Part shown: positions 45,897-62,954 of the stretch, piece by piece
How positions within the stretch are numbered: position 1 is the first letter of the stretch
How the letters are laid out: every line of letters starts with the position of its first letter
Source of the DNA: Arthrobacter stackebrandtii
Lineage (GTDB): Bacteria; Actinomycetota; Actinomycetes; Actinomycetales; Micrococcaceae
Assembly (NCBI RefSeq): GCF_017876675.1
Contig: NZ_JAGIOI010000001.1
Coordinates: 3,968,001-4,032,000, forward strand
DNA length: 64,000 nt
Direction: 5' to 3'
Notes under the pieces: generated by a model
What the model was told of the DNA's origin: nothing
The model's input: only the letters and a program-made list of their open reading frames with translations
Database searches by the model: none
Position numbers and translations under genes: made by a program

Positions 45897-46592
45897 CTAC
45901 TTGACGCCGGCGCTTTCCTGCACCGCGGGGCTGGTCTGCGTTTCAGTCCCGGCACCGCGTGCGTCCCCCTCACGCCAGCCCGTGGTCGCATCCACTCCAT
46001 CCACCAGCCTGCGCCTGCGGAGTGCGGCCGACACCCGGTCCAGCACGATGCCCAGCAGGCACGCTGCCACCACGGCCACCGTCAGTGCCAGGATGGGGTT
46101 CGCCGCAAACCAGGACCCCGCCAGCGCCCCGAGCCCGATGCAATAGGCGGCCCACAGGGACGCCGAGACCGCTGATATGGCCACGAACTTCCGGCGCGGA
46201 AACCCAGTGGCGCCGGCCGTCAGGTTCGCCGCAACCCGGGCAACCGGCAGGAACCGTGCCACCATCATCATGGCCGCTCCCCGGCTCTCCAGCTGTTTCC
46301 CGGCCGCGGCAAATGATTTCTGCATGAAGGGCCGGCGCATCCAGCGAAACCGGGTGGTGCCCAGGGCCCGCCCCATGGCGTAGGCAAGGTTGTCGCCCGC
46401 GAAAGCCCCCACGATGGCGGCCGGCGCCAACATCCACAACCCGGCCCAGCCGTGGGAGGCCAGCAGCGAGGCCATGGCGACCACCAGGACTTCGCTGGGG
46501 ACTGGCGGGAAAAAGCCGTCCAGCAGGGCACAGGCCGCAACCACGGCGTACGCCCACGGCTGACCGGACGCCTCCTGCAGGAACTCAATCAT
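45897..46592 (-). CDS. DedA family membrane protein (second paralogue)
   Basis: A 231-residue protein closely matching the first DedA gene: FFPPVPSEVLVVAMASLL, GDNLAYAMGRALGT, ARFLPVARVAANLTAGATGF and AGSWFAANPILALTVAVV. It carries a longer, charged C-terminal tail. The pair frames the region holding the DUF3604 remnant, IS3 and recombinase. It probably moves lipids or lipid carriers, as DedA proteins do. The ATG at 46592 is the natural start. Confidence 0.9.
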   Translation of the reverse strand: MIEFLQEASGQPWAYAVVAACALLDGFFPPVPSEVLVVAMASLLASHGWAGLWMLAPAAIVGAFAGDNLAYAMGRALGTTRFRWMRRPFMQKSFAAAGKQLESRGAAMMMVARFLPVARVAANLTAGATGFPRRKFVAISAVSASLWAAYCIGLGALAGSWFAANPILALTVAVVAACLLGIVLDRVSAALRRRRLVDGVDATTGWREGDARGAGTETQTSPAVQESAGVK

Positions 46593-46728
46593 GGGCGTGG
46601 CCCTCGTGCGGAAGCGTAGGAAGGATCATGTCTCCAACGCTACGGACCGCAGGGGCGCGCCACCATGGGGGAAACCCCCGGTTTTACCCCGGGAATTCCC
46701 CCGGGCCCCGTCGACGGCGGAGGGCGGC

Positions 46729-47739
46729 TTACGCCGTCAGCCCGCGCTGCTCCGGGGGCAGCCTGAACTTCAAGGGTTCTCCCCGGCCCAGGCGGTGGGC
46801 CTCGGCCACCGTGCTCATGGCCATGCGTTCAAGTTCCGTGCCGAGCGATCCCGCCATGTGCGGGGTGAGCAGCACGTTTGGGTGCGTGAACAGGCCCGAG
46901 TCCGGGGGCAGGTCCCAGGGCGTGGTGACGTCCAGGACGGCGTACAAGTCACCGCGCTGGATGCGCGCAAGCAGTGCGTCCTGGTCCACAATCTCCCCGC
47001 GGGCGGTGTTGATGAACGTGGCGCCGGATTTGAATCCTGCAATCAATTCGGCATTGATCATGTTCCTGGTGGACGGCAGTGACGGCGCATGCAGGCTGAC
47101 CACGTCCGACGTGGCGCACAGTTCCTCAAGCGTTACCTTCGATGCCCCCAAAGCTGTTGCCTCGGCGTCGGACACGAAGGGGTCCGCGAGGACCACCTCC
47201 AGCTCATACTGCGCCAGCAGCCGCATGACATGGCGGCCGATCTTGGAGGCGCCAATGATGCCCACGCGCTTGTTGTAGTTGCCGAGGCTGGGGAACTCGG
47301 CCTCCGCGTGGACCATGGTGCGCTGCGCGTGAACCTTGCGGCCCACCTGCAGCACCCGCTTGTTGGCCAGGATGACCATCGCCACGGTGTACTCGGCGAC
47401 GGGGACGGAGTTGGCGTCGGCGGCCGTGCTGACCTGGATGCCGCGCTCCCAGCAGGCTTCGCCCACGTGGTATTTGACGGTGCCTGCGGAATGCAGGATG
47501 TACCGGAGATTGGGTGCTGCATCGAGTACGGCGGCGTCGATCATGGCGGTGCCCCACCCGGTGATGAGTGCCTCGGCCTCGGCCAACAGGGCAAGGGATT
47601 GCGGGCTGGTGAACTCGGTCATGGGCTCGCGGCTCAGGAGGTCGGCCCCGGAGTCGAGGGCGTCCAGGACCCGTGGCGGGAAAATGCCCGCCGCCACATC
47701 CTCGGGCATGGCCAGCGCAACCTTGATACTCGTGCTCAT
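46729..47739 (-). CDS. D-2-hydroxyacid dehydrogenase family protein
   Basis: A 336-residue NAD-dependent dehydrogenase. The dinucleotide motif is VGIIGASKIGRHVM, the substrate-binding Arg is in NTARGEIVDQ, and the catalytic His is in LTPHMAGSLG. HSAGTVKYHVGEACWERGI and STAADANSVPVAEYTVAM match the phosphoglycerate-dehydrogenase-like group. It acts on an unknown 2-hydroxy acid. The ATG at 47739 starts MSTSIKVALAMPEDV. It is separated from the large operon upstream by about 140 bases. Confidence 0.9.
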   Translation of the reverse strand: MSTSIKVALAMPEDVAAGIFPPRVLDALDSGADLLSREPMTEFTSPQSLALLAEAEALITGWGTAMIDAAVLDAAPNLRYILHSAGTVKYHVGEACWERGIQVSTAADANSVPVAEYTVAMVILANKRVLQVGRKVHAQRTMVHAEAEFPSLGNYNKRVGIIGASKIGRHVMRLLAQYELEVVLADPFVSDAEATALGASKVTLEELCATSDVVSLHAPSLPSTRNMINAELIAGFKSGATFINTARGEIVDQDALLARIQRGDLYAVLDVTTPWDLPPDSGLFTHPNVLLTPHMAGSLGTELERMAMSTVAEAHRLGRGEPLKFRLPPEQRGLTA

Positions 47740-47879: not shown

Positions 47880-49721
47880 TCACGGGGTCGCGGCGTCGTA
47901 CCGCAGGCCGGATGACACCTCGCCGAGCCAGGGCCGTTTGCTGCGCCCGCGCCACACGTAGCTCCTGCCGTCGTATCCGCGGGCGAGCTGGTCGGTGATG
48001 CGCACGTCGATGCCGCTGCGCGTGACCTCCTCGTCGTTGACGTCGCGCACCCCGGCCATGATGGCGCCCTGCGCCCCTCGCCTGGCGCCCGTTTCCGTGG
48101 CCAAAATGCGGGCCTTGCGCAGGATGGGGAGGGTGGTTCCGTCCTGCCTGACCGCCACGAGCGGTGTCCACGTCTGCGCCACCGGCGTCGACAGCCGCCA
48201 GACGAGTTCGTGGGGGTCGGCGGTGTCCGGCTTCGGCAGCCCAAACTCCGAGTTCAGCCAGGGCCTGTCTATGGCGCGGCCGGCGGGGCCCATGATGCGG
48301 CGTTCGATGCACCAGCCCATGTTGGCGCCCTCATCGCGCTGCAGGGCAATCTGTTCCAGGGGCGGCGATTCAATGGGTGCAAGTGCCGAAGGCAGGACGG
48401 CCAGCAGCGGCACGTCCTCCAGCCCGCGGCCCAGCGTTGCCGACGGCTGGAACATCCGCCCCACGTTGTCCGACGCCTGCCACGCACTCGTTCCGACCAG
48501 GGTGGCGACCCCAAAGTTGTCCCGGACGATGACCCAGTCGATGCGGGCGACCCCGCCCACGGGCAGTTCCACCGGTGCCAGGAACCAGTCGGGGCTGAAG
48601 ACCGTGGCGAAGTCCACGGCCGCCATGCGGACCAGGTCCGTGGGCCCGGCGGTGCCGCGCCCGAGGGACAGTTGCGAGTCTTCAAACTCCCAGAACCTGT
48701 TTGAGGGCATCCCCTCAAACACCAGGGGCGCCGGCAGGACGGTGCGCACATGGCGTCCGGTGCTGCCTTCGGAGAAGCCGTCCCCGTCGTGGGGATCCGG
48801 CGGCGGCGCGTCGATGCCCTGTTCCCGCTGGTACTGCGCGGCCAGCGTTTCCGCCGCGGGGCCGGCGATGTCCAGCGAGCTCCAGGTCATGCCGGTGCCG
48901 TTGTATTCCGGCGCCTGCATCAGCACCTGTTCCGCGGCCTGGGCGGGGTTGACGGCGGCGGCAAAGCTGTCCACCGGCAGTGGCGGCGCGGCGATCGTGA
49001 ACGAGTATTCCAGCGCCGGGTTCGACCATGCCGGCACGGCGGTGCCGGCAACGCCCCAGTCCTCGACCATCTCCCGTTTCCAATCATCCACCGCCGCCTG
49101 GACCGCGGCCGGGTCGGTCCCGCCGAGAGCCTGCGCCGGAAGCGCCCCCGCGCCGTCGAGCAGCGAGAGGACCTTGGCCCCGTCCAGCACCTTTCCGGCC
49201 AGCAGTGCGCGGTACCGTGCCTCCACCGCACCCTCCACGATGTCGGTGCTGGGTTCTGGCGGCTGGAAAAGCACGTTCGGGAAGAGGTCCGCCAGCGTGT
49301 CGGCCACGGCGGCGGCCTGGTGCCTCTCAAGGTGCCGCCGCAGTGAGCGCCCGGCCTGGACGGCGGCCACCCACGGCGTCTCCTGCCCGCCGGCGGCGCC
49401 CGGCCGCAGCACGGGTTCGGCCTCAACCACGGCCTCCAGCGGCTTCGAGGATTCCCCCACCAGGGCCACCCGCGGCTGGGCCGCCGGATCCGCACCATCG
49501 CCGGGAACCGTTCCGCCTGGCAGGTAATGGGTGAACCGCGTCCAGCTGGAGGCGATGTCCACGGCGACGGGCGAGCCGCCGTCGTCCCCGCTCAGCTCCC
49601 CCAGCTGCCACTGCCGCAGCAGCATCCACAGCGGGTCTGCCATGCCGGCGGAGAGACCCGGGTCCAGGTCCTGTGTCTGCGTGTGGGGCTCGAGTCTCTT
49701 CCACATCGTGTAGTTGTTCAC
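47880..49721 (-). CDS. Uncharacterised large protein, last gene of the five-gene operon (613 residues)
   Basis: Starts at GTG with MNNYTMWKRLEPHTQTQDLD. A conserved-looking block follows at residues 28-52: ADPLWMLLRQWQLGELSGDD then GGSPV. I recall this block from large unannotated bacterial proteins but know no function. The centre is alpha/beta without clear motifs; the end reads GYDGRSYVWRGRSKRPWLGE. There is no signal peptide or membrane segment. Its GTG overlaps the stop of the 1563-residue gene (GTGA), so the two are translated together. It is the 3' gene of the operon. Confidence 0.85.
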   Translation of the reverse strand: MNNYTMWKRLEPHTQTQDLDPGLSAGMADPLWMLLRQWQLGELSGDDGGSPVAVDIASSWTRFTHYLPGGTVPGDGADPAAQPRVALVGESSKPLEAVVEAEPVLRPGAAGGQETPWVAAVQAGRSLRRHLERHQAAAVADTLADLFPNVLFQPPEPSTDIVEGAVEARYRALLAGKVLDGAKVLSLLDGAGALPAQALGGTDPAAVQAAVDDWKREMVEDWGVAGTAVPAWSNPALEYSFTIAAPPLPVDSFAAAVNPAQAAEQVLMQAPEYNGTGMTWSSLDIAGPAAETLAAQYQREQGIDAPPPDPHDGDGFSEGSTGRHVRTVLPAPLVFEGMPSNRFWEFEDSQLSLGRGTAGPTDLVRMAAVDFATVFSPDWFLAPVELPVGGVARIDWVIVRDNFGVATLVGTSAWQASDNVGRMFQPSATLGRGLEDVPLLAVLPSALAPIESPPLEQIALQRDEGANMGWCIERRIMGPAGRAIDRPWLNSEFGLPKPDTADPHELVWRLSTPVAQTWTPLVAVRQDGTTLPILRKARILATETGARRGAQGAIMAGVRDVNDEEVTRSGIDVRITDQLARGYDGRSYVWRGRSKRPWLGEVSSGLRYDAATP

Positions 49722-52700
49722 GGCGCCAACCTCATCACGTTCTTGTAGGCCTTCTCGGTCAGCAGCCGCCGCAATCGGTCCTCGGTCAGCTTCGCCAACG
49801 GCGTCATCGCCAGCACGGAGGTGGGCGGGTCCGGCAGATAGATCAGCGGCAGGAATTCGCCCAGGCCCGTCTGCTGCAGGTCGTCCAGGTCCACGCCCCG
49901 GATCTTCGCCAGCTCAACGGCCTCCCGCACCGTGTCCAGCATGAGCCGCCACGTCCACGGCACGCCGGGGTTTGGGGCCACGGCCGGGTTGGGGTGGACG
50001 GCCAGCAGGATGCTTTGCGGGGCCCGCGCGTTGGGCGCGTTGTAGTTCAGTGCCAGCCCGGTGGCGGCCGTGGGGGCCGGCAGCACCTCGGCCACCTCAT
50101 CCAGCACCAGCAGGTGGGTGGGTCTTCCGTCCGGCACGGGCACACCGCTGACGACGGCGTGCACGTGCGGTTGGGCGGGCCGCTTCCAGCGCCGGATCGT
50201 GTTGGGACGGGCATCGGGCCCGGGCGGGTCCGCCTCCTCCAGCGGCCCTCCGAGCCAGGCCAGCGCAGGCGTGGGAGGCAGGTGCATGGCCGTCAGCCCC
50301 GGCACGGGGCGCCCCGCCGCCTCCGCAAAGCTGCTCAGGTCCACGAACTCTGCCATGGCAGGGCGCACCCTTGAGGTCCGCACGAGCCACCGCTGCAGCT
50401 CCAGCTGTTCCACGCCCACGACGGCGGAAGAGTCCAGGCCCAGCTCCAGCGAGGGCACCACTGCATCCCCGCCCAGGCGCCGGACCACCTTCACCAGCGT
50501 GTCAATGGCGGTCTTCGACTGCAGAAGCCCGTCCAGCGCGTTCTCCCAGTTGTCGACGCCCACCACCGCCGGTCCGGCATCGGCCGCCCCGCCGCCCGGC
50601 ACGGTGGAGGTGGCACTGTTCGGCCGGCCCTGGCCCAGCAGGACAAAGACGTCCCTGACGACTGCCCCCGCTGAGGATGCCGCGGCCAGTGCCTGGCTGG
50701 TGCTCACGCCGGAACCGGCCACCACACACCCGGGAAAACCGAGGGCGGCCAGCGGAGCAAGCAGCGTGGCGGGCACCTCGACCCCTTCCAGCGGGACGGG
50801 AACCGAAGTGCCGTCGGACGGCGTCGCCGACGCGGCCAGCACGCCGGCAATGCCTCGAACAACCGCGCCCAGCTGCGCCTTCACGGCCCCAACCAGGCCG
50901 GAGAGTTCAGCGGGTCCGGGCGCCGGCGCCGTCCAGCTCCGGCTCGGGCCCAGCGTGGGGTCCGGGTGGGGATAATCCAGGTCTGCGGGCACGGCGGGAC
51001 GCGCCTGGGACAGCACCGAGGCAGCCGCACGCGCCATGTGCAGCAGCGCCGGATCCACCTGGCACCGGGCGTCCAGGGCACACCCGCCGCTGGGTCCCGG
51101 CACCGATTCCGCCACGACGTCCAGGGCACACAGCCCCAGCGAATCCAGGGGCACCACGGCGCCCTCCGCCGCGCCGGATGGCGCCGCCGTCCAACCGGTG
51201 GCCGGGCCCAGCATCCCCCGCGCCCATTGTTCGGCGCCGCGGGCAAGCTGCGCCCGCGGCGCAGCATCGTTCCAGCCTGAGCCGTCCGGCTGCCCGGCAG
51301 ACCCGTCCACGGAAAGCATGAGCCGGTGCGTGATGGTCACCCCGCTGCGAGGTTCCGCGGCGACGGTGATGTCCGGCAGCGGGGCGCCGTCGGCAGCCGC
51401 AGCGAAGGACGCCCCGGCATGTTCCAGCCTGCCCGACGAAAGTTGATGCACGCCGTCGGCCACCAGGAGGTCGGCCACCGACTCGATGGCATCGCCCAGC
51501 TCCTGCAGCGCGGGCCCGGTGCCCTCCAGGCCGGCCATCCCCGCCAGTGCGGCCCTCCCCGTCCAGGCATCCAAGCCGTCCACCACCTCCGGGGGCACGA
51601 CGGCGTCGTCTCCGGCCGCAGGCTCACCCGCAGCGCCCGACGTGCGCCGTTGCGGGAAAAGCTCCCGAAGGATGCCCACGGCAGTTTGCAGGCCGCTGCT
51701 GTTGAGCCTGCGTTCAAGCTGCTGGCCGAGCAGCGCCCCCAGCGGCTGCCCGTGCCCCATTGCGGCCACGATGTCCAGGGCGGCCCGCACCCGCTTGGAC
51801 GTCAGGTCCATGCCGGCCAACGAAGAGCCTCCTCCTGCGTGGGCGGCCTCGGCTGCGCGCAAGATGCCGGCGGTCACGGCCTGGGGCAGGGACGGGGCGT
51901 GCACATAACCCAGCGGATCCGCGGGGATGCGCAGCTCGGGCGCATCCGGCACACCGTGCGCCTTCAGGTGCTCCACCCACGCATCCGGGACGGGCCCGGT
52001 GCTGCCGGCCGCCGTCGCCTGGGCTCCCGCGGCAGTGCTTTGCGGCCTGATGTTGACCAGCACGCCCCATGCCCCTGCGTGCAGCCCCAGCTCAGTTCCC
52101 TTGCGGAGCGTCGCCAGCCTGCTGGTGGCCAGGGACGTGTACCAGGCGTCGAGCCGGTGGCTGGAGGCGGCCAGGGTTTCCGAGGTCATCCGCGTGTACT
52201 CCGCGTCGCTGAGCCCGGCCTCGGCCAGTGTCCACAGCGCCCGGCGGGTTCCGGCCAGGGTGTTGACTTCCTGCCACGGGTGCAGGATCGCATCCGAGGC
52301 GAGGACTCCGCCGTGGATGTTGACGGCGTCATCCCAGACTGCGTCGTGGATGCTCAGGCCGGCCCCGGCCGCAGTGACCATGCCGGCGGCCGTCGCCACG
52401 GCCGACAGCTTGGTGTTGTACACGCTCCCCATCTGGACCGCGGCGGGGTCTGCACTCTTGTCCGTCTCCGGAGGCAGCACCATGGCCGCCCTGAATTCAA
52501 CGTCGTTGACCACGCTGAGCAGCAGTTTGGCGTCCAGTTCACCGGCTGCCTCCAGGGCCCGCTCGGCCACCACATACAGGAGGTCGTCCGGCGGGTTCGG
52601 GTCTGCGGGCGCCGGCGCCCCGAACCCGTGGCGCCAGGTGCTGCGGCGCAGCAGGGCCCCCAGATAGTCCGACGGCGTCACCCGTGCCCCTGCCCTGGTC

Positions 52701-54409
52701 GCCGTTTGTGCCACGGCCCTGAGCACGGGGAGCTGGCCCCGGGTGGACATTTCAACCAGCAGGGAGCCGTCGAAGTAGTCGCCGAGGGTGGCGGAGAGAA
52801 CCCGCCGCACAGCGTCCAGGCCCAGCGACTTGACCAGGGACGAGTCCTTGGCCACCATGCCATTCAGCAACGCCAGCGGGTCAAGGTCCCTTCCCGCAGC
52901 GGCACCGAGGTCCAGGGCCCTGGTCATCATGCCGACCATCGGCCCCACCACGTCCCGGAGCCACCAGCCCGCCTCATGCGGCACCGGCGAACGGCCGAAG
53001 ATCGTGAACATGGCAGCCGCGGCATTGGCGGTGCCTGCGGCCATGGTGGGCACGGACCCGGCAGCGCGGGAGAAATACCAGCGCAGCTCATTCAGGGTGT
53101 CCAGCAGGCTGCCCTGCAGCCTGTCTTCCCCGGCCACACGGACCCAGCCCGAGGTTGCCATGACGGGCAGGATTCCGTAGGGGTTGCTGCCGATCCGCAG
53201 TGGCTGGATGGGGCCGTTGCTGCGCACGAACGATGTGGCGTGGGTGCGGGCAAAGAGCAGCGTTTCCTGCCGCAGGCGGGCACGCGCATTGCCGGGTTGG
53301 GGATCTTCGAAGGTGCGCCGGGCCAGGTCGCCCAGGGCCTGCCCCAGGGTGACGGGAAAGAACGCCCCGGTGAAGTTGCGTGAGTACCACGCCTCCCGGC
53401 CGGACGCGCCGGAGAATCCCGCAGCCGTCCCCGGCGGCAGGCCGAGCGCCGCCTCAAAGACCGTGCCGTCGGCGGCACCGCCGGCGAGGGCGGGCACGGC
53501 CGGGTCGAGGGGCGCCGGGGCCGCCGCCGTTTCCGTCACGAAACGGAAGCCGTCAAATTCGTCCTGTTCCGCCGACCACCCGCTGGGCGCACCGCCCAGG
53601 TTGTTCGTGGCGGCTCCCTGGGCCACAAATCCGAGTGGCGCGGCGGCGGCGTGCCCGGACAGCAGTCCGGCAACGAAGTTGGCAGTGCTGTCGGGATCGG
53701 CACTGCCCACGCCGAACACGTACAGCGCCTGCAGTCCGTGAAGTGCAGCCGGCGTGTGGCTCCCGGAAGCCGCCTCTCCAGTGGTTTCAAGGTCGATTTC
53801 CGCCGCCATTCCGCAGGCAAGTGCCGCATCAAAGTCGCTGACCCAGCGGGCCGGGTCTGCCTTCGGCACCAGCTGGGCGTCGGCGGGATCCAGTGCGTGG
53901 TCGGGATCCGCCGGGGCAAGCGGCAGGGTGCCCGGCACCCCCTCAATGTGGTGCACAAAAGCCAGCCCTCCGCCGTCGTTCTCCCCGACAACCACCCAGG
54001 AATCCGGCAGCAGCACGGCATGCGGCACGTCCGCGGCCGCGGCGGGAACAGACCCGCCGCGTGTCTGCAGGGCCAGGTGGACGGCCTTGGCGCTGCCCAC
54101 GTGGCGGACGTAGAGCTCCCAGGCTGCGCCGCGGCGCGCAGCGTCCTCGGCCGTAGCTCCGGCGTGGTCCTGCTGGGCCTGCCAAAACGCGGCTGCTGCC
54201 GCAATTTCCGCCTCGCTGAAGGCGGGGCTGCCTCGGTCGACGGAGAGGTCGTCGGGATAGATGCGAAGGCGCAGGGTGGCGATCTCGGGTCCGTCGGCGG
54301 ATTCGCGGCGCGTGCCGAAGCGGGTCTCCAGCCGGACGGGCAGGAGCGCCACGGGAACCGTGGTGAACAGCCTGTCGAAGAGGTTGTCCGGCGGTGGCTG
54401 GGGTTGCAT
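49718..54409 (-). CDS. Giant uncharacterised protein of the operon (1563 residues)
   Basis: Opens MQPQPPPDNLFDRLFTTVPV, followed by LLPVRLETRFG (residues 22-32) and LRLRIYPDDL (46-55). A second recognisable block is RIGSNPYGILPVMATSGW near residue 405, and a third near 1455 is LALNYNAPNARAPQSILLAV. Long Ala/Gly-rich helical and beta segments lie between. There is no signal peptide, membrane span, Walker motif or protease triad. It follows the 1187-residue gene by 27 bases and overlaps the next by 4. I cannot name a function; the blocks look like those of a conserved, undescribed family. Confidence 0.85.
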   Translation of the reverse strand: MQPQPPPDNLFDRLFTTVPVALLPVRLETRFGTRRESADGPEIATLRLRIYPDDLSVDRGSPAFSEAEIAAAAAFWQAQQDHAGATAEDAARRGAAWELYVRHVGSAKAVHLALQTRGGSVPAAAADVPHAVLLPDSWVVVGENDGGGLAFVHHIEGVPGTLPLAPADPDHALDPADAQLVPKADPARWVSDFDAALACGMAAEIDLETTGEAASGSHTPAALHGLQALYVFGVGSADPDSTANFVAGLLSGHAAAAPLGFVAQGAATNNLGGAPSGWSAEQDEFDGFRFVTETAAAPAPLDPAVPALAGGAADGTVFEAALGLPPGTAAGFSGASGREAWYSRNFTGAFFPVTLGQALGDLARRTFEDPQPGNARARLRQETLLFARTHATSFVRSNGPIQPLRIGSNPYGILPVMATSGWVRVAGEDRLQGSLLDTLNELRWYFSRAAGSVPTMAAGTANAAAAMFTIFGRSPVPHEAGWWLRDVVGPMVGMMTRALDLGAAAGRDLDPLALLNGMVAKDSSLVKSLGLDAVRRVLSATLGDYFDGSLLVEMSTRGQLPVLRAVAQTATRAGARVTPSDYLGALLRRSTWRHGFGAPAPADPNPPDDLLYVVAERALEAAGELDAKLLLSVVNDVEFRAAMVLPPETDKSADPAAVQMGSVYNTKLSAVATAAGMVTAAGAGLSIHDAVWDDAVNIHGGVLASDAILHPWQEVNTLAGTRRALWTLAEAGLSDAEYTRMTSETLAASSHRLDAWYTSLATSRLATLRKGTELGLHAGAWGVLVNIRPQSTAAGAQATAAGSTGPVPDAWVEHLKAHGVPDAPELRIPADPLGYVHAPSLPQAVTAGILRAAEAAHAGGGSSLAGMDLTSKRVRAALDIVAAMGHGQPLGALLGQQLERRLNSSGLQTAVGILRELFPQRRTSGAAGEPAAGDDAVVPPEVVDGLDAWTGRAALAGMAGLEGTGPALQELGDAIESVADLLVADGVHQLSSGRLEHAGASFAAAADGAPLPDITVAAEPRSGVTITHRLMLSVDGSAGQPDGSGWNDAAPRAQLARGAEQWARGMLGPATGWTAAPSGAAEGAVVPLDSLGLCALDVVAESVPGPSGGCALDARCQVDPALLHMARAAASVLSQARPAVPADLDYPHPDPTLGPSRSWTAPAPGPAELSGLVGAVKAQLGAVVRGIAGVLAASATPSDGTSVPVPLEGVEVPATLLAPLAALGFPGCVVAGSGVSTSQALAAASSAGAVVRDVFVLLGQGRPNSATSTVPGGGAADAGPAVVGVDNWENALDGLLQSKTAIDTLVKVVRRLGGDAVVPSLELGLDSSAVVGVEQLELQRWLVRTSRVRPAMAEFVDLSSFAEAAGRPVPGLTAMHLPPTPALAWLGGPLEEADPPGPDARPNTIRRWKRPAQPHVHAVVSGVPVPDGRPTHLLVLDEVAEVLPAPTAATGLALNYNAPNARAPQSILLAVHPNPAVAPNPGVPWTWRLMLDTVREAVELAKIRGVDLDDLQQTGLGEFLPLIYLPDPPTSVLAMTPLAKLTEDRLRRLLTEKAYKNVMRLAP

Positions 54410-54436
54410 GGGAGGCTCCGTTCAGGTTCCGGATTG

Positions 54437-57400
54437 CTAGATGTAGTCGGTGCCGAGCATGAGCAGGCGGAATGGCTTTTGGTAGAGCCGCTGGGCCGCG
54501 ACGGCGCTGTGGGCCGTGAGGATGGAGTTCTCGCCGACGCACTGCTGCGGGGTCAGGTGCAGTGTTCTGGCGGGGTTGGCCGGGGGCGGGTTCAGCCCCT
54601 GCCACGACCATGAGTCGGCAGGAAGGAGGTCCGCCTCTTCCAGCCCTGCCGGCGCCTGGTTGCTGCCCGGCAGGGCACCCGGTACCTCGTCCAGGCCGAA
54701 GCGGGGTTCGCCGTGGGGTTCCGCGAGCTGGATGTACCAGCGCGTCGGATTGTCCGCCGGCCCGACCTGCCGCAGCGTTTCCGGTGCGATGTCCAGGCCA
54801 ACGTAGCTGACATCGGGGTTGAGGGTGCCCCGGAAGAGCTCTTCGCCCACATTGTCCGTGGGCGTGAAGGTGCCCGCCGGTTTTTCCACCCCCTGCACCG
54901 CATTGATGACGGTATTGGGATAGCGGCGCAGCAGGTCTCCCTTCAGGACCAGCAAGGTGATGTCCGCCCGCTTGTTCCCGGCTGCGGCGGGCTGGTGCAT
55001 TCCAAGGGCGCCCCGCCAGGAGTCCATGCCGGCGATGTCCTCGGCATTCTTGTCCCAGAAGCGCCTGAAGCAGCTGCCCCGAAGGTCCGTGGGGTACCTG
55101 CGCCACAACATTTCCCGGGCCATCTCGTGGTTGGCACCGGCCAGGAGCGACTCCACAAACTTCCAGTTCACCTCCAGCAGGCACACACTGTTCGGTTCAA
55201 GCCTGTCCACACCGCCGAGGACCCATTTCTCGTCGATCGCCTTCAGCCGCTCCACCACGGGCTTGGTGAAGGTTGGTGCCGCCATGGCCGGGGTGAAGGC
55301 GGTGTCGGGACGTTTGCGGACCAGCGCAGGGTTGAATTCCGCGGCGAAGGCCAGCATCTTGGCGTAGGCACGGACGGGTTCAACGGCCGCCGCAAGCTGC
55401 GTGCTCGCCTCGGCGGTCCAGGCCTGTGCGGCAGGGAAGGAAACCTTGGCCGCGACGGGCGTCACCTGGGCCCAGTCCGCAGCAATGGCATCCGTGACCG
55501 CCTTCAACCGGTTGTTCTTGACGGCCCCGTCCAGCCACGTACCCTGGAGCGTGGTGGTGCCCAGCAGTCCGGCTGCCGCTTCCCGCAGGCCCGTGGCCGC
55601 TGCACCGGCGTCCTGGAATTTCTGGCGCAGCGGTGCATCGACTGTTGCCGCGGCCAGGACTGCGCCGAAGTCCAGACGTGCCGGTGCCACCTGCAGCCGT
55701 TCGGACATCAGCCGCGGGTCCAGCAGGTCCTTGGCCTGGGCCTTGCTCAGTCGGGCAACGTCCACGGCGGCCGTATTCTTCAGTTCCGTCGTGTCCTGGT
55801 AGCTCCACCGCCGTCTGGCGGCCAGGTTGGCGACGTCCATTGGGGCCTGGCCGCCGACAGGACCTTCAACACGGCCATCGGCACCCCTGCGCCGAAGTTC
55901 CTCCCGGAACACCGGCCCGCCTTCGGGCAGCCGCAGGCCGCCGATGCCACCGCCACGATTGGCCCTGAGCCCGCCGGCTGCACCGCCCCGGTTCAGACTG
56001 ATGCCGCCCACTCCCCCCAGTCCCCCGCCGCGGTTTGGCCGCAGTTCGCCGATGCCTCCGATTCCGCCACGGCCATCAACCCTGCCTCCGCCGATGCCGC
56101 CCCCGCCGCCCTGTCCCCCGGCGTCGGGCACCACCACATCCGGGGTGACCGCCGCGGCAGCGAGCCTGCCCAGGAAATCAGGCAGTGACTTGACACGGTC
56201 AAGGTAGGCCGGACCATCCACACCCAGCACGGCCGTGAGCCTGCCGGCAAAGCGCGGCTCCGTGAGCACATCTTCAAGGATTCGGTCCCCCATGGGCGCG
56301 GCTGTGAAACGGCCCGGCTGGAATCGTTCAGGTTCGTCCCGCAGGATCCGCACCGCGTCCGACACCACGGCTGCGACGGCCGGAGCCCCCGCATGCACGG
56401 CCCCGGCACTGCGCCGGACGGCGAGGCTGGCCGCGCGCGCCTGGCGGGTGAACGCCGTCGTCAATACTTCCGATGACACCACGGAGGCGCTGACCTTCCC
56501 GTAAAAAGACTCTCCGGGGCCGCTGCGCAGCCTGCCCAGCGAAGGTGCCAGGAACCGCAACTGCGAGCCCGGGTCGGCCTTCATGACGCGGTCGTGGAGC
56601 GTTGCAGAAACCGCCATGTGCAGTGCCGACCAGCGGATCCGGCGGTTGGCCCGTTCCAGCCCGGCCAGCTGTTCCCAGGCGTCGCGCATGAGTTCCTCCT
56701 GGTCGCGGCGCACCACGGCGGCGCCCAGCCCGGCGGCGATGCGGTGGAACGGGTCGGCATTGAGCTGCTCGATCCAGCCCTGCCTGCTGCCCGGGTCCTT
56801 GTCGACGTCGGCCAGCACGCCGGCGTTGTCCAAGTCCCCGTCGATGTTTCTCACCTGTGCCGGCCACTGCCCGTAGAGCGGCGGACCCACCAGCGGCTTC
56901 TCGTCACCGGCCAGGGCCACGGGGTCCAGCAACTGCTTGAGCATCGCGTGCAGCCCGGCCGCCTTTCCGCCCGGCCCGGCAAAGTCCGGTGCCAGCGGCC
57001 CCACCCCGTCGGTGCTGCCGGGTTCGCCTGAGCGGTCGATGCGGATGATGGCCGTGGGGACGGCGAAGGCACCCGGCACGGCGCCGCCGCCGAATCCGCC
57101 CTGCATGAGATGCGCCGGCAGCATCGAGCCCTTGGGTTCAATCGCCACCGCGCGCGACCCCAGCTGGGCCATGACCGCCGGATCGCTGGGATGAAGCAGG
57201 CCCGCCAGGTCCTCGAAATCCCCGGAGGGGCCGGTCCGGAACGTCCACGAATCGTAAACCGGAAGCTGCAGCCCGGCGGCCGGGGTCCACCACTTGTCGC
57301 CGTTGGCTCCGGCTTGCGAATCGAGGCCCAGCCCGGCCAGCCTGCCAACTTCATAGGTGGGCACGACGGCGGCCACATAGCTGGTCTCCGGCACCAGCCT

Positions 57401-58000
57401 TGTGGGGCACAACAGCCGGGAACGGAGCGCAGGGGCATGCACCTGGGCGTCGCCGGCCCACCCCTGTGCCTCCCCGCCGCTGTCCGCGCCGTGGACCTGG
57501 ACATGGGCAAAGGCCCAGGCATCATCTGGACGCGGAACGCTGCCGGCATCGGGCAGCGTCAGGACCGGGCAGGGCGAGTTGGGCAGGTAGCCCACCGGAT
57601 TCCCTCCGGCTTCAGGCAGCACAATGAGCATGATCCAGGGATTGAGCGTTTCGTTCACGACCCCGCCCAGGGTGAACATCCATGGCAGGTCCGGATGGGC
57701 CAGTTCAATGCCTGCCAGGTAGTTGGGCTCCATTGACTGGTCGCCGCTGCGCGGGATGCGGCGCACGATTTGGCTGTCGGACAGTCCACGGACATCGGCT
57801 GGGCCCAACACGGACAGGGGTGCCGACGCCACGTCCACAGGCTGCACTGCCGGCACGGGCCCTCCCTGCGGCGGCGTCGGCCGGGTTTCCAGGGTCAGGG
57901 GCAGGGAAACCTTCCTCCGCCCATTTTCAAGCCCTGCCCCGGGCCCCGCACCCTCGCCGCGCCTGGAGTATGGAAGGAAGTGGAGCAGCAGCGGTTCCAT
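54437..58000 (-). CDS. Giant uncharacterised protein of the operon (about 1187 residues)
   Basis: The ATG at 58000 overlaps the stop of the DUF6603-like gene (TGATG) and is preferred to one at 58015. MEPLLLHFLPYSRRGEGAGP leads to VSLPLTLETRP (32-41), echoing the LETR motif of the 1563-residue protein. A glycine-rich, repetitive linker lies near residues 630-695 (RPNRGGGLGG-type units). The C-terminal part contains NHEMAREMLWRRYPTDLRGS near 955 and GEPRFGLDE near 1100, which look conserved. No enzyme motif, signal or membrane span is seen. It is central to the operon; function unknown. Confidence 0.85.
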   Translation of the reverse strand: MEPLLLHFLPYSRRGEGAGPGAGLENGRRKVSLPLTLETRPTPPQGGPVPAVQPVDVASAPLSVLGPADVRGLSDSQIVRRIPRSGDQSMEPNYLAGIELAHPDLPWMFTLGGVVNETLNPWIMLIVLPEAGGNPVGYLPNSPCPVLTLPDAGSVPRPDDAWAFAHVQVHGADSGGEAQGWAGDAQVHAPALRSRLLCPTRLVPETSYVAAVVPTYEVGRLAGLGLDSQAGANGDKWWTPAAGLQLPVYDSWTFRTGPSGDFEDLAGLLHPSDPAVMAQLGSRAVAIEPKGSMLPAHLMQGGFGGGAVPGAFAVPTAIIRIDRSGEPGSTDGVGPLAPDFAGPGGKAAGLHAMLKQLLDPVALAGDEKPLVGPPLYGQWPAQVRNIDGDLDNAGVLADVDKDPGSRQGWIEQLNADPFHRIAAGLGAAVVRRDQEELMRDAWEQLAGLERANRRIRWSALHMAVSATLHDRVMKADPGSQLRFLAPSLGRLRSGPGESFYGKVSASVVSSEVLTTAFTRQARAASLAVRRSAGAVHAGAPAVAAVVSDAVRILRDEPERFQPGRFTAAPMGDRILEDVLTEPRFAGRLTAVLGVDGPAYLDRVKSLPDFLGRLAAAAVTPDVVVPDAGGQGGGGGIGGGRVDGRGGIGGIGELRPNRGGGLGGVGGISLNRGGAAGGLRANRGGGIGGLRLPEGGPVFREELRRRGADGRVEGPVGGQAPMDVANLAARRRWSYQDTTELKNTAAVDVARLSKAQAKDLLDPRLMSERLQVAPARLDFGAVLAAATVDAPLRQKFQDAGAAATGLREAAAGLLGTTTLQGTWLDGAVKNNRLKAVTDAIAADWAQVTPVAAKVSFPAAQAWTAEASTQLAAAVEPVRAYAKMLAFAAEFNPALVRKRPDTAFTPAMAAPTFTKPVVERLKAIDEKWVLGGVDRLEPNSVCLLEVNWKFVESLLAGANHEMAREMLWRRYPTDLRGSCFRRFWDKNAEDIAGMDSWRGALGMHQPAAAGNKRADITLLVLKGDLLRRYPNTVINAVQGVEKPAGTFTPTDNVGEELFRGTLNPDVSYVGLDIAPETLRQVGPADNPTRWYIQLAEPHGEPRFGLDEVPGALPGSNQAPAGLEEADLLPADSWSWQGLNPPPANPARTLHLTPQQCVGENSILTAHSAVAAQRLYQKPFRLLMLGTDYI

Positions 58001-60051
58001 CAGGCCATCTCCCACGTCTTGGCTACGAGAACGTCATTGAGGATGCCGGCGTCCAGACGTGCCGCGCCCTGCCCCGCCAACAGGCTCTGGGCCACGCCGG
58101 CGTTGATTCCCGCCATGGCGTCCGCGCCCAACACCCCTGCGTCGGACAGCGTGCTCGCCCGGGCCAGGACCACTGCGCCCGGGTCCCTGGCGGTCGTGAC
58201 GAGCCGCGGAATTTCAGGCACCTGCAGCCGGTGCATTTCCGCAAGAGAGTACATGTTGCGGGTCAGAATGGCGTGCCGCACGGGCGATTGTGTGGACATG
58301 ATCTTGGTTTCCGGGACGGCGGGGTTGCGCACGGCGGCGACAGTTCCGGCGTCGGGCTTGTTGGCCAGCACCACACCGGCATCGGCGCTGACATATCCGC
58401 CGGCCGCCAACTTTGCCTGGGCGTCCATGGACCGAAACTGCGACGGCGGGAATTTCGCCGAGGTGTTTGACAGCGCCGGGTTGGCCGGGCTGAGCAGGGA
58501 CAGGGTGACCGGCTGCGGAAGAGGGCGCCCATCCATGCGCTGAAGCTCAAGGTGCAGCGGCACGCTGTTTTGGGTGAAGGAAACATTTGCCAGCGGGTGG
58601 AGCGCCGCGGTGCCGGCGGCCGCTGCCGGGGACAACTGCACGACGGCGGGCAGCTCGCCTTGCGCCTGTTCCCAGTTGACCGGATCCTTGAGGGCATTGG
58701 CCAGCACCTCGGCCGGAATGCGCCCGGCGGGCAGCTCGGGTGCGTTGCTGTCGCCCCAGGTGATTTCCGGGACGTCAACGTCCACGTCGAACCAGAGGAT
58801 GGAGACGCTGGCGTGGCCGCGGATGCGCCACGGCGTGGGCCCGGAGAAGTGGCCGGAGAGCCTGATGCTGCCAATGCTGAAGTCGGCGCATTCCACGCTG
58901 ACGTGCGCGGAGAAGTCTGCCATGAAGCCGAAGGGGTCGAACATGATGAGAGCGTCGAAGGCGAAGCCGCCGCTGATGCCGAATCCGGCGACCTTGGCTT
59001 CGAGCTCCGCAGCTGCCCCGAACTGCACCGTGTTGGTTGTTACGGCGAGGTAGGCGCCGAGGCGGGCCCGGAGGAAACCGCCGGGCGAAACTTCGGTGCC
59101 GATGCGCTTGAGTCCGCCCATTCCCTCCGGAGGGGTGAACGCCGGGTGGAAGCCGCCGGCGCTGAAGGCAAAGAGTGGGTCGCTGCCGCCGCGGGTGCGC
59201 AGCATGATGTCCCCGGTGATGGGCAGTCCGACGATGCTGGATCCGGTCAGGGAGGCACCGATCGTGAGGCCGTCGGCGTTGATGGTGCCAAGCATCATGG
59301 CCTGCAGCTTGATGAGGGGGGCGTCCTCGAAGGGCAGGACGATGGCGAACCTGCCCAGCAGGACCACACCCTCATCGCTGACAAACACGCCCAGCGCCGC
59401 CGATGCGAGCGTGGGGGTGCCCCAGCCGAGCTTGAGCATGGGGCCCACGATGAAACCGCCGTCCTTTTCCGGGAAGGACGCCGCCAGCGCCGGCAGTATG
59501 CGCGGGGCATCGCTGACGGCGTTGCGCGGGAACATGAACTCGGCCAGGGTCCCGGCCTGCAGCGCCGCGAACAAGCCGTCGCTGTCGGCCCGGCGGTTGA
59601 TGCCGACCATTCCGCCCACACCGGCAAGGGTGAAGCCAAAGGACAGCTGGATGGGGACGGGGAGGTCTGCCGACAGCAGGAGCAGCAGGGATTGCGTCGC
59701 GGGGTTGAGGATGGCAAAGCCGTTGACGGCAACAGGCCCCATCTTGGCGGTGAAGGCACCCTGCCAGGAGCCTTGCACCTTCTTCAGGTATCCGCCGCCG
59801 GTAAAGCCGGGCAGCGTCAGTTCCGCCCGGGCGCCGTCGGGCCCGCCCAGGTCGGGTCCGGCCAGGCGCAGGCCCAGGCGCCCGTTCTCCGAGACCATGG
59901 AGAGGTTGTAGCTGATCCGCATGTTGTCCACGGAGAGGACCAGCCCGGGGAGTTCCAGGCTCCCCTTGACCCACACGCCGACGGAGACGGAACTGTCCGC
60001 TCCGTTGGCATTGCCGGCCACGTCCAAACCCACATTGAAGCTGTTGCCCAT
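58000..60051 (-). CDS. DUF6603-like protein (683 residues)
   Basis: A beta-rich protein with alternating hydrophobic and Gly/Ser residues: MGNSFNVGLDVAGNANGADS, GGGYLKKVQGSWQGAFTAKM, LLLLLSADLPVPIQLSFGFT and GVGGMVGINRRADSDGLFAA fit the DUF6603 domain. WRIRGHASVSILWFDVDVDV marks a late conserved segment, followed by an Ala/Val-rich tail to KTWEMA. The fold could be a long beta sheet or channel-like structure, but there is no signal peptide. It is the only member of the operon with a named domain. The preceding gene is 51 bases upstream. Confidence 0.82.
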   Translation of the reverse strand: MGNSFNVGLDVAGNANGADSSVSVGVWVKGSLELPGLVLSVDNMRISYNLSMVSENGRLGLRLAGPDLGGPDGARAELTLPGFTGGGYLKKVQGSWQGAFTAKMGPVAVNGFAILNPATQSLLLLLSADLPVPIQLSFGFTLAGVGGMVGINRRADSDGLFAALQAGTLAEFMFPRNAVSDAPRILPALAASFPEKDGGFIVGPMLKLGWGTPTLASAALGVFVSDEGVVLLGRFAIVLPFEDAPLIKLQAMMLGTINADGLTIGASLTGSSIVGLPITGDIMLRTRGGSDPLFAFSAGGFHPAFTPPEGMGGLKRIGTEVSPGGFLRARLGAYLAVTTNTVQFGAAAELEAKVAGFGISGGFAFDALIMFDPFGFMADFSAHVSVECADFSIGSIRLSGHFSGPTPWRIRGHASVSILWFDVDVDVPEITWGDSNAPELPAGRIPAEVLANALKDPVNWEQAQGELPAVVQLSPAAAAGTAALHPLANVSFTQNSVPLHLELQRMDGRPLPQPVTLSLLSPANPALSNTSAKFPPSQFRSMDAQAKLAAGGYVSADAGVVLANKPDAGTVAAVRNPAVPETKIMSTQSPVRHAILTRNMYSLAEMHRLQVPEIPRLVTTARDPGAVVLARASTLSDAGVLGADAMAGINAGVAQSLLAGQGAARLDAGILNDVLVAKTWEMA

Positions 60052-60102
60052 GGCCAGGTCCTCCCTGAGCTGTTGTCTGCACGGGCCGGCGGCCCGCGCG
60101 TT

Positions 60103-60954
60103 TCAGGTCAAGCTGAATTGCGGTGCCGCGCCCTTCTTGAGGGTCAGGTGCGGCGAGTAGTCGATCTCCGGCAGGGACAGGTTCACCAACTGGGAGAAGT
60201 CGCCAAGGACCCGTCCCAGGTTGATAGAGGCGTGCACGCCGTGCCGGCCGTCGACCGTGGGGTCGCCCAGGCTGATGGTGGCCTCGTAGCTGATGTCGGC
60301 CGGCTGCGGCCCGTGGCCGACGACGGCGGAAAGCATGGCCGGGCCGACGGAGAACCCGAACGTTTCCCGGTCCGGGTCGGAGGAAGGTACGGGGAGGTGC
60401 CAGGCGATGGCGGCGTTCACCTGCGCGGAATCGGCCGGGGCCTCCGGTGCTTTCCCGAATTCCCAGTCCCAGCTCGCGTTGCCGCTGCTCTTGATGTTCA
60501 GGGTGATGCCGGTGTCGTCCCCCAGCGCAAGGGTGGGGGTGCCGGAGCAGCGCAGGTGGAGGCCGTGCCGTCCGGGGATGGCTGCCCTGCCCAGTGATAC
60601 GCCCAGGACCAGCTTCGTGCCGGCCATGGCGGGATCACTGTAGACGAGTGCGACTGCGGGCGCGAAGCCGGGCGCCTGCATCGTGCCGACGCTGAATTTG
60701 TCGTCGAGTTCGGCGATCTTCAGGAAAACAAAGACCAGCAGTGAATTCCAGTCGGGGTCCTTGGCGAAGTTCTTCAGGCGTGCCAGCAGTTCCTCGGGCA
60801 GTTGCGTCGCCTCGTCAACGAGCTGCCCGGCCTGCTGCCGGGCGGCGTCCATGACGTCGGTGAAATCCTGGGTGCCATCATCGGCCAGCTGTGATGCGGC
60901 CGCGAGGATCTGGCTGACGACTGTGCCTAGGGTCTCAGGTGTTGCAGCGACCAT
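60103..60954 (-). CDS. First gene of the operon, DUF6603-associated protein (283 residues)
   Basis: Opens MVAATPETLGTVVSQILAAA, a helical segment up to about residue 70 with Gln/Ala/Leu, followed by a beta-rich part (HGLHLRCSGTPTLALGDDTG, GNASWDWEFGKAPEA, FGFSVGPAMLSAVVGHGPQP). The beta part resembles the start of DUF6603 proteins, so this and the next gene may be halves of a protein that is single elsewhere. There is no signal peptide. The ATG at 60954 has only a weak ribosome site. About 600 bases upstream lies an IS701 element. Confidence 0.78.
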   Translation of the reverse strand: MVAATPETLGTVVSQILAAASQLADDGTQDFTDVMDAARQQAGQLVDEATQLPEELLARLKNFAKDPDWNSLLVFVFLKIAELDDKFSVGTMQAPGFAPAVALVYSDPAMAGTKLVLGVSLGRAAIPGRHGLHLRCSGTPTLALGDDTGITLNIKSSGNASWDWEFGKAPEAPADSAQVNAAIAWHLPVPSSDPDRETFGFSVGPAMLSAVVGHGPQPADISYEATISLGDPTVDGRHGVHASINLGRVLGDFSQLVNLSLPEIDYSPHLTLKKGAAPQFSLT

Positions 60955-61206: not shown

Positions 61207-61441
61207 CGGAAAGTTTTCAGGCATTGCCAAGGAAACGTTCAGAGCGTGTTGGGGCGAGGCACTGCAGGAGGTCCCTGACGCATGATTGAAGTGCGAAAGG
61301 CGTCCGTTGCCTCATTTTCCCTGCACCCCGTCGGTGCGGGCGAGGAAGAAGTCCGGATGCCCACGCCTGAAGGAAGATGATCGGGAACCAAACGATTGCC
61401 CTCACTGGCGATGCCGGTGGAAACGCATGATCCGCACAAAA

Positions 61442-61503
61442 GGGACGGTGTTGGCGGATTCGGACGGCGGTATACCCCTGTCCGAATCCGCAAACACCGT
61501 CCC
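61442..61503. terminator. 24-bp near-perfect inverted repeat
   Basis: Arms 61442-61465 and 61480-61503 pair at 23 of 24 positions (GGGACGGTGTTGGCGGATTC... ) around a 14-base loop, and TTCTCATT follows. It stands between the operon's upstream region and the IS701 element. It may be a terminator or REP-like palindrome and would isolate the operon from transcription coming from the right. Confidence 0.65.
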
Positions 61504-61547
61504 TTCTCATTGTGGGTGCCAAGCAACGCCCTGAACCACCGGCCTAG

Positions 61548-62954
61548 TACTACAGTCGCGTTTGTGGGGTGTGGCCGCGGGCTTTGTAGTGGCATTGTTG
61601 GGCGCGGTATTGGTGTCGTCGTCGCCAAAGTGACCAGCGGATCACGTGGTGTGGGTCCGGTTCCCGATGCCAGATGATGCGGGTGATGAGGTGCCTGATT
61701 TCTGGCAGGGAGAGTCTTACCAAGTGCTCGGAGCCTGGGTGCGGGCCCCCTTTTTAGAGCGGATGACGCTCAGGAATGCGTGGGCGAACATGGAGAGGGT
61801 GATGTGCCTGTACCAGCCGGTGTATTGGCGCACCTGGTAGTGATCGAGTCCCGTTTCGCCCTTGGAGGTTTGGAAGGTTTCCTCGATGGCCCAGCGGGCC
61901 CCGGCGACTCGGGCCAGCTCGATCAAGGTGACGTTCTCGGGGGTGTGGCAAATGAAGTACGCCAGGTCGGTCGGGTCTTTCAGGGAGCGGCGGGCCAGCA
62001 GCCAATGCTCGCCGGTTTCGGCAGGGCCGTTAATGCGGATCCTGGCCCAGGCGTAGAGCCGTTCACCCTTGGTCCCGGTCCCGGCGGTTCGGGTGCGCCA
62101 GGCACGCCTGTCTAGGGCAGCGAAGAGCTCATCGGCACGGCCGTCCCCGCCCACTGAACCACGCGCCCGGGCGATGGCGTGTTGGTTCATAGGTACCGCC
62201 ATGACGTAGTGCATGCCCCGGGCCTCGAGTCGGCGGCGCAGCCCTGTGTGTTGGCCGTAGACGGCGTCCCCGGTGGTCCATTCGGCCTGGATTCCGGCGT
62301 CCAGGGCACGTTCAATCATGTCCCCGGCCAGCACCGGCTTGGTGGCCATTTCCCGCTCTTCCGGGATGCCAGCGCGCTTGCACCGGGCCTCGTCCTCGAT
62401 CCAGGCCTTGGGCAGGTAAAGCTCCCGATCCAGGAACGTGCGCCCCGCCGGTGAAGCGTAGCTCAGGAACACCCCGATCTGGCAGTTTTCCACCCTCCCG
62501 GCGGTGCCCGAGTACTGGCGGGCCACCCCGGCAGAAGCCGTCCCCTTTTTCAGGAAACCGGTCTCATCAATCGCCAAAATGCCTTCTGGATCACCGAGGT
62601 GCTTTTTCACGTAGCCGAACAAAGCATCACGGACCTTATCCGGGTCCCAATCGGTCGTCGAGAGTAGCCGCTGCATCCCATCCGGCGTGCCCTGCCCAGC
62701 GCGCTCGGACAGCGTCCAAGAGTTCTTCCGCTCCTCATCCGAGAGCAGGCCACGGATGTAGTTGACCGCGTTATTCCGCGGCTCCGTGCGGGCGAACTCG
62801 TCCCCGATCAGCTCCCGGATTTCCTCCAGGCCATCAGCCCATTCCTGTATCTCTGCCACCCAAATATCATCGCTCACCCATCATGATTAACAGGATTCCG
62901 GGCCAAAGTCCGATTAAACCGCCGACACGACCAAAAATAAACGCGACTGTAGTA
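61548..62954. mobile_element. IS701-family insertion sequence with CTAG target duplication
   Basis: Terminal repeats TACTACAGTCGCGTTT at 61548-61563 and the exact complement at 62939-62954 enclose one transposase gene. CTAG stands at both borders (61544-61547 and 62955-62958), the 4-base target duplication typical of IS701 elements. The element is about 1407 bp, with both ends intact, so it is probably a recent insertion. Confidence 0.92.
61717..62877 (-). CDS. IS701-family transposase
   Basis: A 386-residue DDE transposase. The catalytic residues are likely Asp in ILAIDETGFLKKG, Asp in WTTGDAVYGQHTGLR and Glu in WAIEETFQTSKGETGLD. The N terminus (YIRGLLSDEERKNSWTLSER) is the conserved IS701 DNA-binding region. 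The ATG at 62877 gives full length, with no frameshift or stop, so the enzyme is probably functional. It lies within intact terminal repeats and a CTAG target duplication. Confidence 0.93.
   Translation of the reverse strand: MSDDIWVAEIQEWADGLEEIRELIGDEFARTEPRNNAVNYIRGLLSDEERKNSWTLSERAGQGTPDGMQRLLSTTDWDPDKVRDALFGYVKKHLGDPEGILAIDETGFLKKGTASAGVARQYSGTAGRVENCQIGVFLSYASPAGRTFLDRELYLPKAWIEDEARCKRAGIPEEREMATKPVLAGDMIERALDAGIQAEWTTGDAVYGQHTGLRRRLEARGMHYVMAVPMNQHAIARARGSVGGDGRADELFAALDRRAWRTRTAGTGTKGERLYAWARIRINGPAETGEHWLLARRSLKDPTDLAYFICHTPENVTLIELARVAGARWAIEETFQTSKGETGLDHYQVRQYTGWYRHITLSMFAHAFLSVIRSKKGARTQAPSTW

What the first reader, a model, noticed from the sequence alone, without database searches (positions are those of the whole stretch)
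47880..60954. Five-gene operon of giant uncharacterised proteins: candidate undescribed system
Five co-directional genes (283, 683, about 1187, 1563 and 613 residues) span about 13 kb with overlaps (GTGA, TGATG) or gaps of 27 and 51 bases, so their products are probably made in fixed ratio and assemble together. Only the 683-residue protein resembles a named domain (DUF6603). None has a signal peptide, membrane span, Walker motif or recognisable enzyme site. Conserved-looking blocks (LLPVRLETRFG, DPLWMLLRQWQLGE, NHEMAREMLWRRYPTD, GSNPYGILPV) suggest ancient families kept for a purpose. A large multi-subunit structure is the simplest hypothesis; its role is open.
Basis: partly seen in the sequence, partly recalled or inferred. 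Interest (0 to 1): 0.85.

Follow-up and report, generated by a model that had tools for sequence, protein, structure and literature searches.

The report
Swappable-enzyme carrier operon across prokaryotes
This stretch holds one copy of a never-described set of four giant genes that bacteria and archaea from more than a dozen phyla keep in the same order, apparently the parts of one machine into which different cell-attacking or polymer-cutting enzymes are plugged through an exchangeable adaptor.

Summary
The five ORFs are real and exactly as described. Four (B=DUF6603, C, D, E) are a conserved cassette: of 80 loci found through D, 57 carry B-C-D-E in that order on one strand; the other 23 are cut by contig ends. 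They span about 13 phyla, including haloarchaea and an Asgard archaeon. C, D and E match no family, and E's predicted fold matches nothing in PDB or BFVD.

The gene 5' of B, usually translationally coupled to it, is variable: PhoD-like phosphatase, M64 metallopeptidase, subtilisin, trypsin-like protease, PLD, peptidoglycan hydrolases, others; no signal peptides.

B is a two-part adaptor. In Nitrospira, operons read X1-B1-X2-B2-C-D-E: within a genome the two B genes are unrelated-looking over their first ~490 residues but 99.3-99.9% identical in DNA over the DUF6603 half (gene conversion). Across phyla the B N-terminal half tracks the enzyme class (34/37 nearest neighbours; 0/2000 permutations). 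So enzyme plus B N-terminus is an exchangeable module on a constant DUF6603-C-D-E core.

Best reading: a polymorphic-effector carrier complex. Architecture is well supported; what it delivers, where and why is inferred. The window copy is under purifying selection but has no adjacent recognisable enzyme.

The parts
60103..60954 (-). A, 283 aa; subtype-specific protein, helical N-terminus then beta (judged from sequence); proposed split-off counterpart of the variable N-terminal half of B
   Evidence: relatives only in L008, L010, L015, L107, L137. Homology to B N-termini not shown (best E 0.04); a true split B is seen in L087
58000..60051 (-). B, 683 aa; DUF6603 protein without the ~450-aa N-terminal half that most relatives have; constant half of the adaptor
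   Evidence: PF20248 E 2.7e-87; AF2 model pLDDT 86, about 25 amphipathic antiparallel strands
58420..59982 (-). DUF6603 domain within B (residues 24-544)
54437..58015 (-). C, 1192 aa; core component, two conserved parts joined by a Gly-rich linker; some relatives carry FG-GAP propeller inserts in C
   Evidence: no Pfam or PDB match
49718..54409 (-). D, 1563 aa; core component
   Evidence: no family, PDB hits only noise; split in Rhizobium, fused to E in L106
47880..49721 (-). E, 613 aa; core component, best conserved
   Evidence: AF2 pTM 0.79, no fold match in PDB or BFVD
61232..61717 (.). end of similarity to the sister copy L008 about 280 bp 5' of A; where relatives carry the enzyme gene(s), the window has unrelated sequence followed by a DDE transposase
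61717..62877 (-). DDE_5 transposase (IS), not part of the system
   Evidence: PF13546 E 2e-53

Best explanation
The window holds the constant core (plus subtype protein A) of a widespread, undescribed multi-subunit machine that carries interchangeable hydrolytic enzymes. SHOWN: genes B-C-D-E are a fixed cassette in many phyla; a variable enzyme gene X precedes B and is usually coupled to it; B consists of an N-terminal half that goes with X and a DUF6603 half that stays with C-D-E; several X-B pairs can share one C-D-E, their DUF6603 halves being homogenised by gene conversion. INFERRED: B's N-terminal half binds its cognate enzyme, DUF6603 docks it onto a C-D-E scaffold, and the giant amphipathic beta-sheet of DUF6603 contacts or inserts into lipid. 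PROPOSED role: the loaded complex acts on envelopes or polymers outside the producing cell (antagonism of neighbours or lysis), reaching the outside by a route that needs no signal peptide, such as cell lysis or an unknown exporter. In the window genome the core is kept by selection but no enzyme gene is adjacent.
For: Cassette. Variable X: 55 upstream proteins give PhoD 13, M64 8, S8 4, PG_binding 4, PLD 3, trypsin 2, singletons Het-C, YkuD, beta-lactamase2, with active-site motifs HELGH, GTSMAAP, GDSG, HKD present. Coupling: gap medians X-B 2 nt, B-C -4, C-D 9, D-E 3. Module swap: Nitrospira L078 vs L072, C 94% and D 93% identical, X unrelated, B ~25% identical up to residue ~490 and then 86-98%. 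Tandem X-B pairs and gene conversion: B1/B2 3' halves 99.3-99.9% nt identical within four genomes, about 78% between genomes. B N-terminus follows X class in 34/37 vs 23/37 for the DUF6603 half, permutation 0/2000. Split B in L087. Shared C-terminal domain on trypsin-like and subtilisin-like X (E 1e-12 to 2e-15). DUF6603 amphipathic; nearest folds apoB belt, porins, ushers. Peptidoglycan hydrolases 5' of A in congener G017 and in L107. No signal peptides.
Against: No direct evidence of secretion, lipid binding, complex formation or killing. No conserved small immunity gene. Fold similarity of DUF6603 is weak (E 1.1e-3, TM about 0.2). PhoD, M64 and subtilisin need not be weapons. The window copy has no recognisable X nearby, and A is not demonstrably homologous to B N-termini. 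An orphan E (L006) and DUF6603 loci without D/E (L101, L103, L108) exist.
Confidence: 0.6

Rival explanations
1. Intracellular conflict (anti-phage or programmed-death) system: C-D-E with propeller modules sense an invader and release or activate the bound enzyme, which damages the producing cell.
For: Swappable effectors are typical of defence systems; patchy distribution (3 of 23 genomes of the genus; 9 of 297 Actinomycetota with DUF6603); propellers as accessory parts (WD40, Kelch, FG-GAP); all components lack signal peptides.
Against: No NTPase or known signalling domain in the core; no PADLOC match; 95 neighbouring genes show no defence-island signal (AbiEii once, RtcR twice); peptidoglycan hydrolases with PG-binding domains make little sense in the cytoplasm.
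Confidence: 0.22
2. Extracellular nutrient-scavenging particle: phosphatase, peptidases and phospholipase displayed on a released or surface complex to degrade polymers, with no antagonism.
For: Enzyme set resembles secreted scavenging hydrolases; no immunity genes needed; many hosts are free-living environmental organisms.
Against: Scavenging enzymes normally carry signal peptides; class-specific adaptor and gene conversion point to modular arming; lysozyme- and M23-like cargo.
Confidence: 0.13
3. Domesticated phage or tail-like structural module, or Tc/eCIS-type apparatus.
For: Large structural proteins; PG-hydrolase neighbours; contractile sheath PF04984 in 14/24 system-bearing Actinobacteria vs 27/297 sampled.
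Confidence: 0.05

Closest known systems
Polymorphic toxin systems (Zhang et al. 2012, PMC3482391)
   Same: Conserved carrier part, exchangeable effector part, recombination boundary between them, several effector versions per genome.
   Different: Effector is a separate gene and the exchanged unit includes a B N-terminal adaptor half; no adjacent immunity gene family, no signal peptide, none of the known trafficking domains.
T6SS/eCIS effector-adaptor loci (for example effector displacement in Vibrio cholerae, PMC5361080)
   Same: Logic of effector versions exchanged on a shared machine; displaced and tandem cassettes.
   Different: No sheath, tube, baseplate or AAA+ genes; core proteins have no known family.
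Tc toxin complexes
   Same: Few giant proteins encoded together, enzyme cargo, beta-propeller modules (comparison from general knowledge).
   Different: No TcA, TcB or Rhs/YD-repeat match by Pfam in any component.
Effector-associated-domain conflict systems (PMC8195603)
   Same: Trypsin-like and other effectors sharing a common non-catalytic domain; patchy distribution.
   Different: No STAND, MoxR or other NTPase, no recognised EAD; core entirely different.
Apolipoprotein B belt, porins, ushers (fold level only)
   Same: Long series of amphipathic antiparallel strands in DUF6603.
   Different: Weak match (E 1.1e-3, TM about 0.2), no sequence similarity, no signal peptide.

Membership tests
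Pfam DUF6603 (PF20248) | profile score over the curated cut-off | tested here: met
   B 293.9 bits vs cut-off 27
This B-C-D-E cassette | four families in order B-C-D-E, one strand, short gaps | tested here: met
   window and 57 of 57 uncut loci
This B-C-D-E cassette | enzyme gene X coupled 5' of B (or of A) | tested here: not met
   absent next to the window copy and in L008; present in congener G017 as two PG hydrolases; those two proteins have no relative found in the window genome
Polymorphic toxin systems | adjacent immunity gene | tested here: not met
   X-B gap median 2 nt leaves no room for a gene between; small co-directional gene 5' of X in only 6 of 31, three of these being B remnants
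Polymorphic toxin systems | known trafficking or export domain or signal | tested here: not met
   Pfam of core, no signal peptide by hydropathy
Polymorphic toxin systems | effector exchange by recombination against a constant part | tested here: met
eCIS / T6SS | sheath, tube, baseplate, ATPase genes in the locus | tested here: not met
   own genome has no sheath
Tc toxins | TcA/TcB/YD-repeat domains | tested here: not met
   no Pfam match in core or X
Anti-phage defence system | match to a known defence model or location in a defence island | tested here: not met
Anti-phage defence system | protection against phage | not testable with these tools
   needs an experiment
AsmA/TamB/VPS13 bridge-like lipid transfer proteins | chorein/AsmA domain and beta-groove fold | tested here: inconclusive
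   no Pfam match; best fold hits are apoB and barrels, TamB or VPS13 not among the 50 listed

The most novel reading that the evidence does not exclude
A pan-prokaryotic polymorphic-effector machine, built wholly of unknown protein families, in which a giant amphipathic beta-sheet protein (DUF6603) with an exchangeable enzyme-specific N-terminus carries signal-peptide-less hydrolases onto or through membranes of other cells, the constant halves of co-resident adaptors being kept identical by gene conversion.
Probability: 0.35. Interest if true: 0.93.

Novelty: categorically new. Interest (0 to 1): 0.85.

Why it matters
A gene cassette of about 10 kb conserved from Actinobacteria to haloarchaea and an Asgard archaeon, with no paper in the held library naming even its one catalogued domain, is a blind spot. 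The modular logic found here gives concrete handles: which enzyme goes with which adaptor half, and which part docks on the common core. If it is a delivery machine, it would be a new way for prokaryotes to send enzymes out without a signal peptide.

Tried and rejected
Sequence relatives in PDB by profile: none for C, noise for D and E, only generic helical bundles for the B N-terminus. Homology of C with D or E: none; E and D share at most a weak helical segment. Fold of E: no match in PDB or BFVD. Phage origin: the only 'phage' record with a relative (MT835531) carries ordinary bacterial genes around C-D-E, so it is probably a bacterial contig; the viral-contig scan found nothing. Defence island: not supported. 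A as N-terminal half of B: colinear but not significant. Existing literature: no paper on it found.

Full report
OBSERVATION. The five ORFs exist at the stated places with the stated overlaps and gaps. B is DUF6603 (E 2.7e-87); A, C, D, E have no significant match in Pfam, NCBIfam, PHROGs or PADLOC. Between the window and a close copy in L008 all five genes have dN/dS 0.17-0.20, like the adjacent dehydrogenase gene, so they are maintained proteins.

A FIXED CASSETTE. tblastn of E against plasmids found relatives in Streptomyces, haloarchaea, Gemmatirosa, Rhizobium and Paraburkholderia, with DUF6603-C-D-E in the same order in four of the five plasmid loci opened. A scan of 84,980 genomes with a D profile gave 225 relatives, 80 loci kept. 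Profiles of B, C, D, E on six-frame translations show all four in order B-C-D-E on one strand in 57 loci; each of the other 23 is cut by a contig end. An E tree of 60 rows carries 13 phylum labels, intermixed, including Hermodarchaeota and haloarchaea. Because these loci were found through D, I also started from DUF6603: of 8 other DUF6603 genomes among 297 Actinomycetota, four carry B-C-D-E, one carries B-C at a contig end, three belong to a sister type. Genes overlap or nearly so. C and D are each split in two in Rhizobium and D-E are fused in L106: fission and fusion support one physical assembly.

THE VARIABLE POSITION. Gene calls by a self-trained script agreed closely with the annotated plasmid loci. 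The gene just 5' of B differs between loci: PhoD-like phosphatase, M64 metallopeptidase, subtilisin, trypsin-like, PLD, PG-binding or hydrolase, Het-C, beta-lactamase-like; some have no match. Many keep active-site motifs. None in tight linkage shows a signal peptide by hydropathy. Trypsin-like and subtilisin-like versions share a C-terminal domain of about 125 residues (E 1e-12 to 2e-15).

B IS A TWO-PART ADAPTOR. In Nitrospira, L078 and L072 have C 94% and D 93% identical, but X is unrelated (M64 vs subtilisin) and B is at background identity for about 490 residues, then 86-98%. Upstream sequence showed why: the operon is X1-B1-X2-B2-C-(269 aa)-D-E, X1 being PLD or PhoD-like and X2 M64 or subtilisin. 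Within each of four genomes, one of them the closed N. defluvii genome, B1 and B2 are 99.3-99.9% identical in DNA over the last ~1750 nt, while the gene is only 78-79% identical between genomes: gene conversion of the DUF6603 half. Over 37 X-B pairs from many phyla, the nearest relative by B N-terminus has the same enzyme class in 34, by DUF6603 half in 23; same-class pairs are closer in the N-terminus than DUF6603 similarity predicts (0 of 2000 permutations of labels, which do not account for relatedness). In L087 the two halves are separate genes. Hence enzyme + B N-terminus is one exchangeable module and DUF6603-C-D-E is the constant receiver.

STRUCTURE. AF2 of window B: mean pLDDT 86, about 25 antiparallel strands, one face hydrophobic and one polar (mean difference 2.8 hydropathy units, vs 1.3 for strands of E); Foldseek nearest are apoB-100 (E 1.1e-3, prob 0.99), porins and ushers with TM about 0.2: the same kind of surface, not homology. 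AF2 of E (pTM 0.79) matches nothing. Relatives add propellers or surface-type modules to C, D or E: FG-GAP, Kelch, lamin tail, BGTF.

THE WINDOW COPY. It belongs to an actinobacterial subtype in which B lacks the N-terminal half and a separate A precedes it. That A is the detached N-terminal half is suggested by layout (L087) but not by detectable homology. In congener G017 (E 60% identical) two genes directly 5' of A encode a lysozyme-like protein and an M23-like peptidase (both catalytic folds judged from the sequence itself), each with a PG-binding domain supported by PDB relatives; L107 has SLT and PG-binding proteins there. The window and L008 lack them: L008 has a transporter-permease-like and an alcohol-dehydrogenase-like gene (judged from sequence), the window has unrelated sequence and an IS, and a search of the window genome with the two proteins found no relatives. 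The system is patchy in the genus: own genome plus 2 of 22 congeners.

MECHANISM. Shown: modular exchange, coupling, order. Inferred: X binds B N-terminus; DUF6603 docks on C-D-E; DUF6603 meets lipid. Proposed: action outside the producing cell. The PG hydrolases favour an envelope target; the lack of signal peptides and of immunity genes leaves the route and the victim open. The intracellular conflict reading is the main rival.

LIMITS. No biochemical data; enzyme classes rest on Pfam and motifs; 80 of 225 loci were examined; gene starts are computed; preprints were not searchable, so an unpublished description cannot be excluded.

Noticed in passing
L101:1511-14378, L103:1-12999, L108:1592-15309: A sister system: DUF6603 protein + a C-like protein (C profile E 3e-15 to 8e-6) + a different third protein (LVPI..ALxV...), without D or E; in L101 a metallo-beta-lactamase-like gene (weak Pfam match) sits 5' of the DUF6603 gene.
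   Followed up: partly
L129-L133 (Nitrospira): B1/B2 paralogues in one operon with near-identical 3' halves and unrelated 5' halves: a clean natural case of domain-limited gene conversion.
   Followed up: yes
L008: Contig labelled Sporosarcina beigongshangi has 68% GC and is 83% identical in DNA to the window over 15 kb; the label or the assembly looks wrong (an actinobacterium of the window's genus, like G012).
   Followed up: partly
L005 (MT835531.1): An 'unverified bacteriophage' record that carries C-D-E and ordinary actinobacterial-type genes: probably a bacterial contig.
   Followed up: partly
L006:15932-17737: Orphan E gene on a Streptomyces plasmid without B, C or D in the stretch read.
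   Followed up: no
L022, L023, L064, L081, L062, L070, L072: Common ~125-aa C-terminal domain on trypsin-like and subtilisin-like proteins; no Pfam family was reported for it in those scanned.
   Followed up: partly
L069:8793-9602 and equivalents: A 269-aa protein inserted between C and D in the Nitrospira-type operons of one clade.
   Followed up: no
window 45897-47739: VTT-domain protein and D-2-hydroxyacid dehydrogenase follow the operon in both the window and L008, just beyond E.
   Followed up: partly
Contractile sheath genes in 14/24 system-bearing Actinobacteria vs 27/297 sampled; genome size not controlled.
   Followed up: partly
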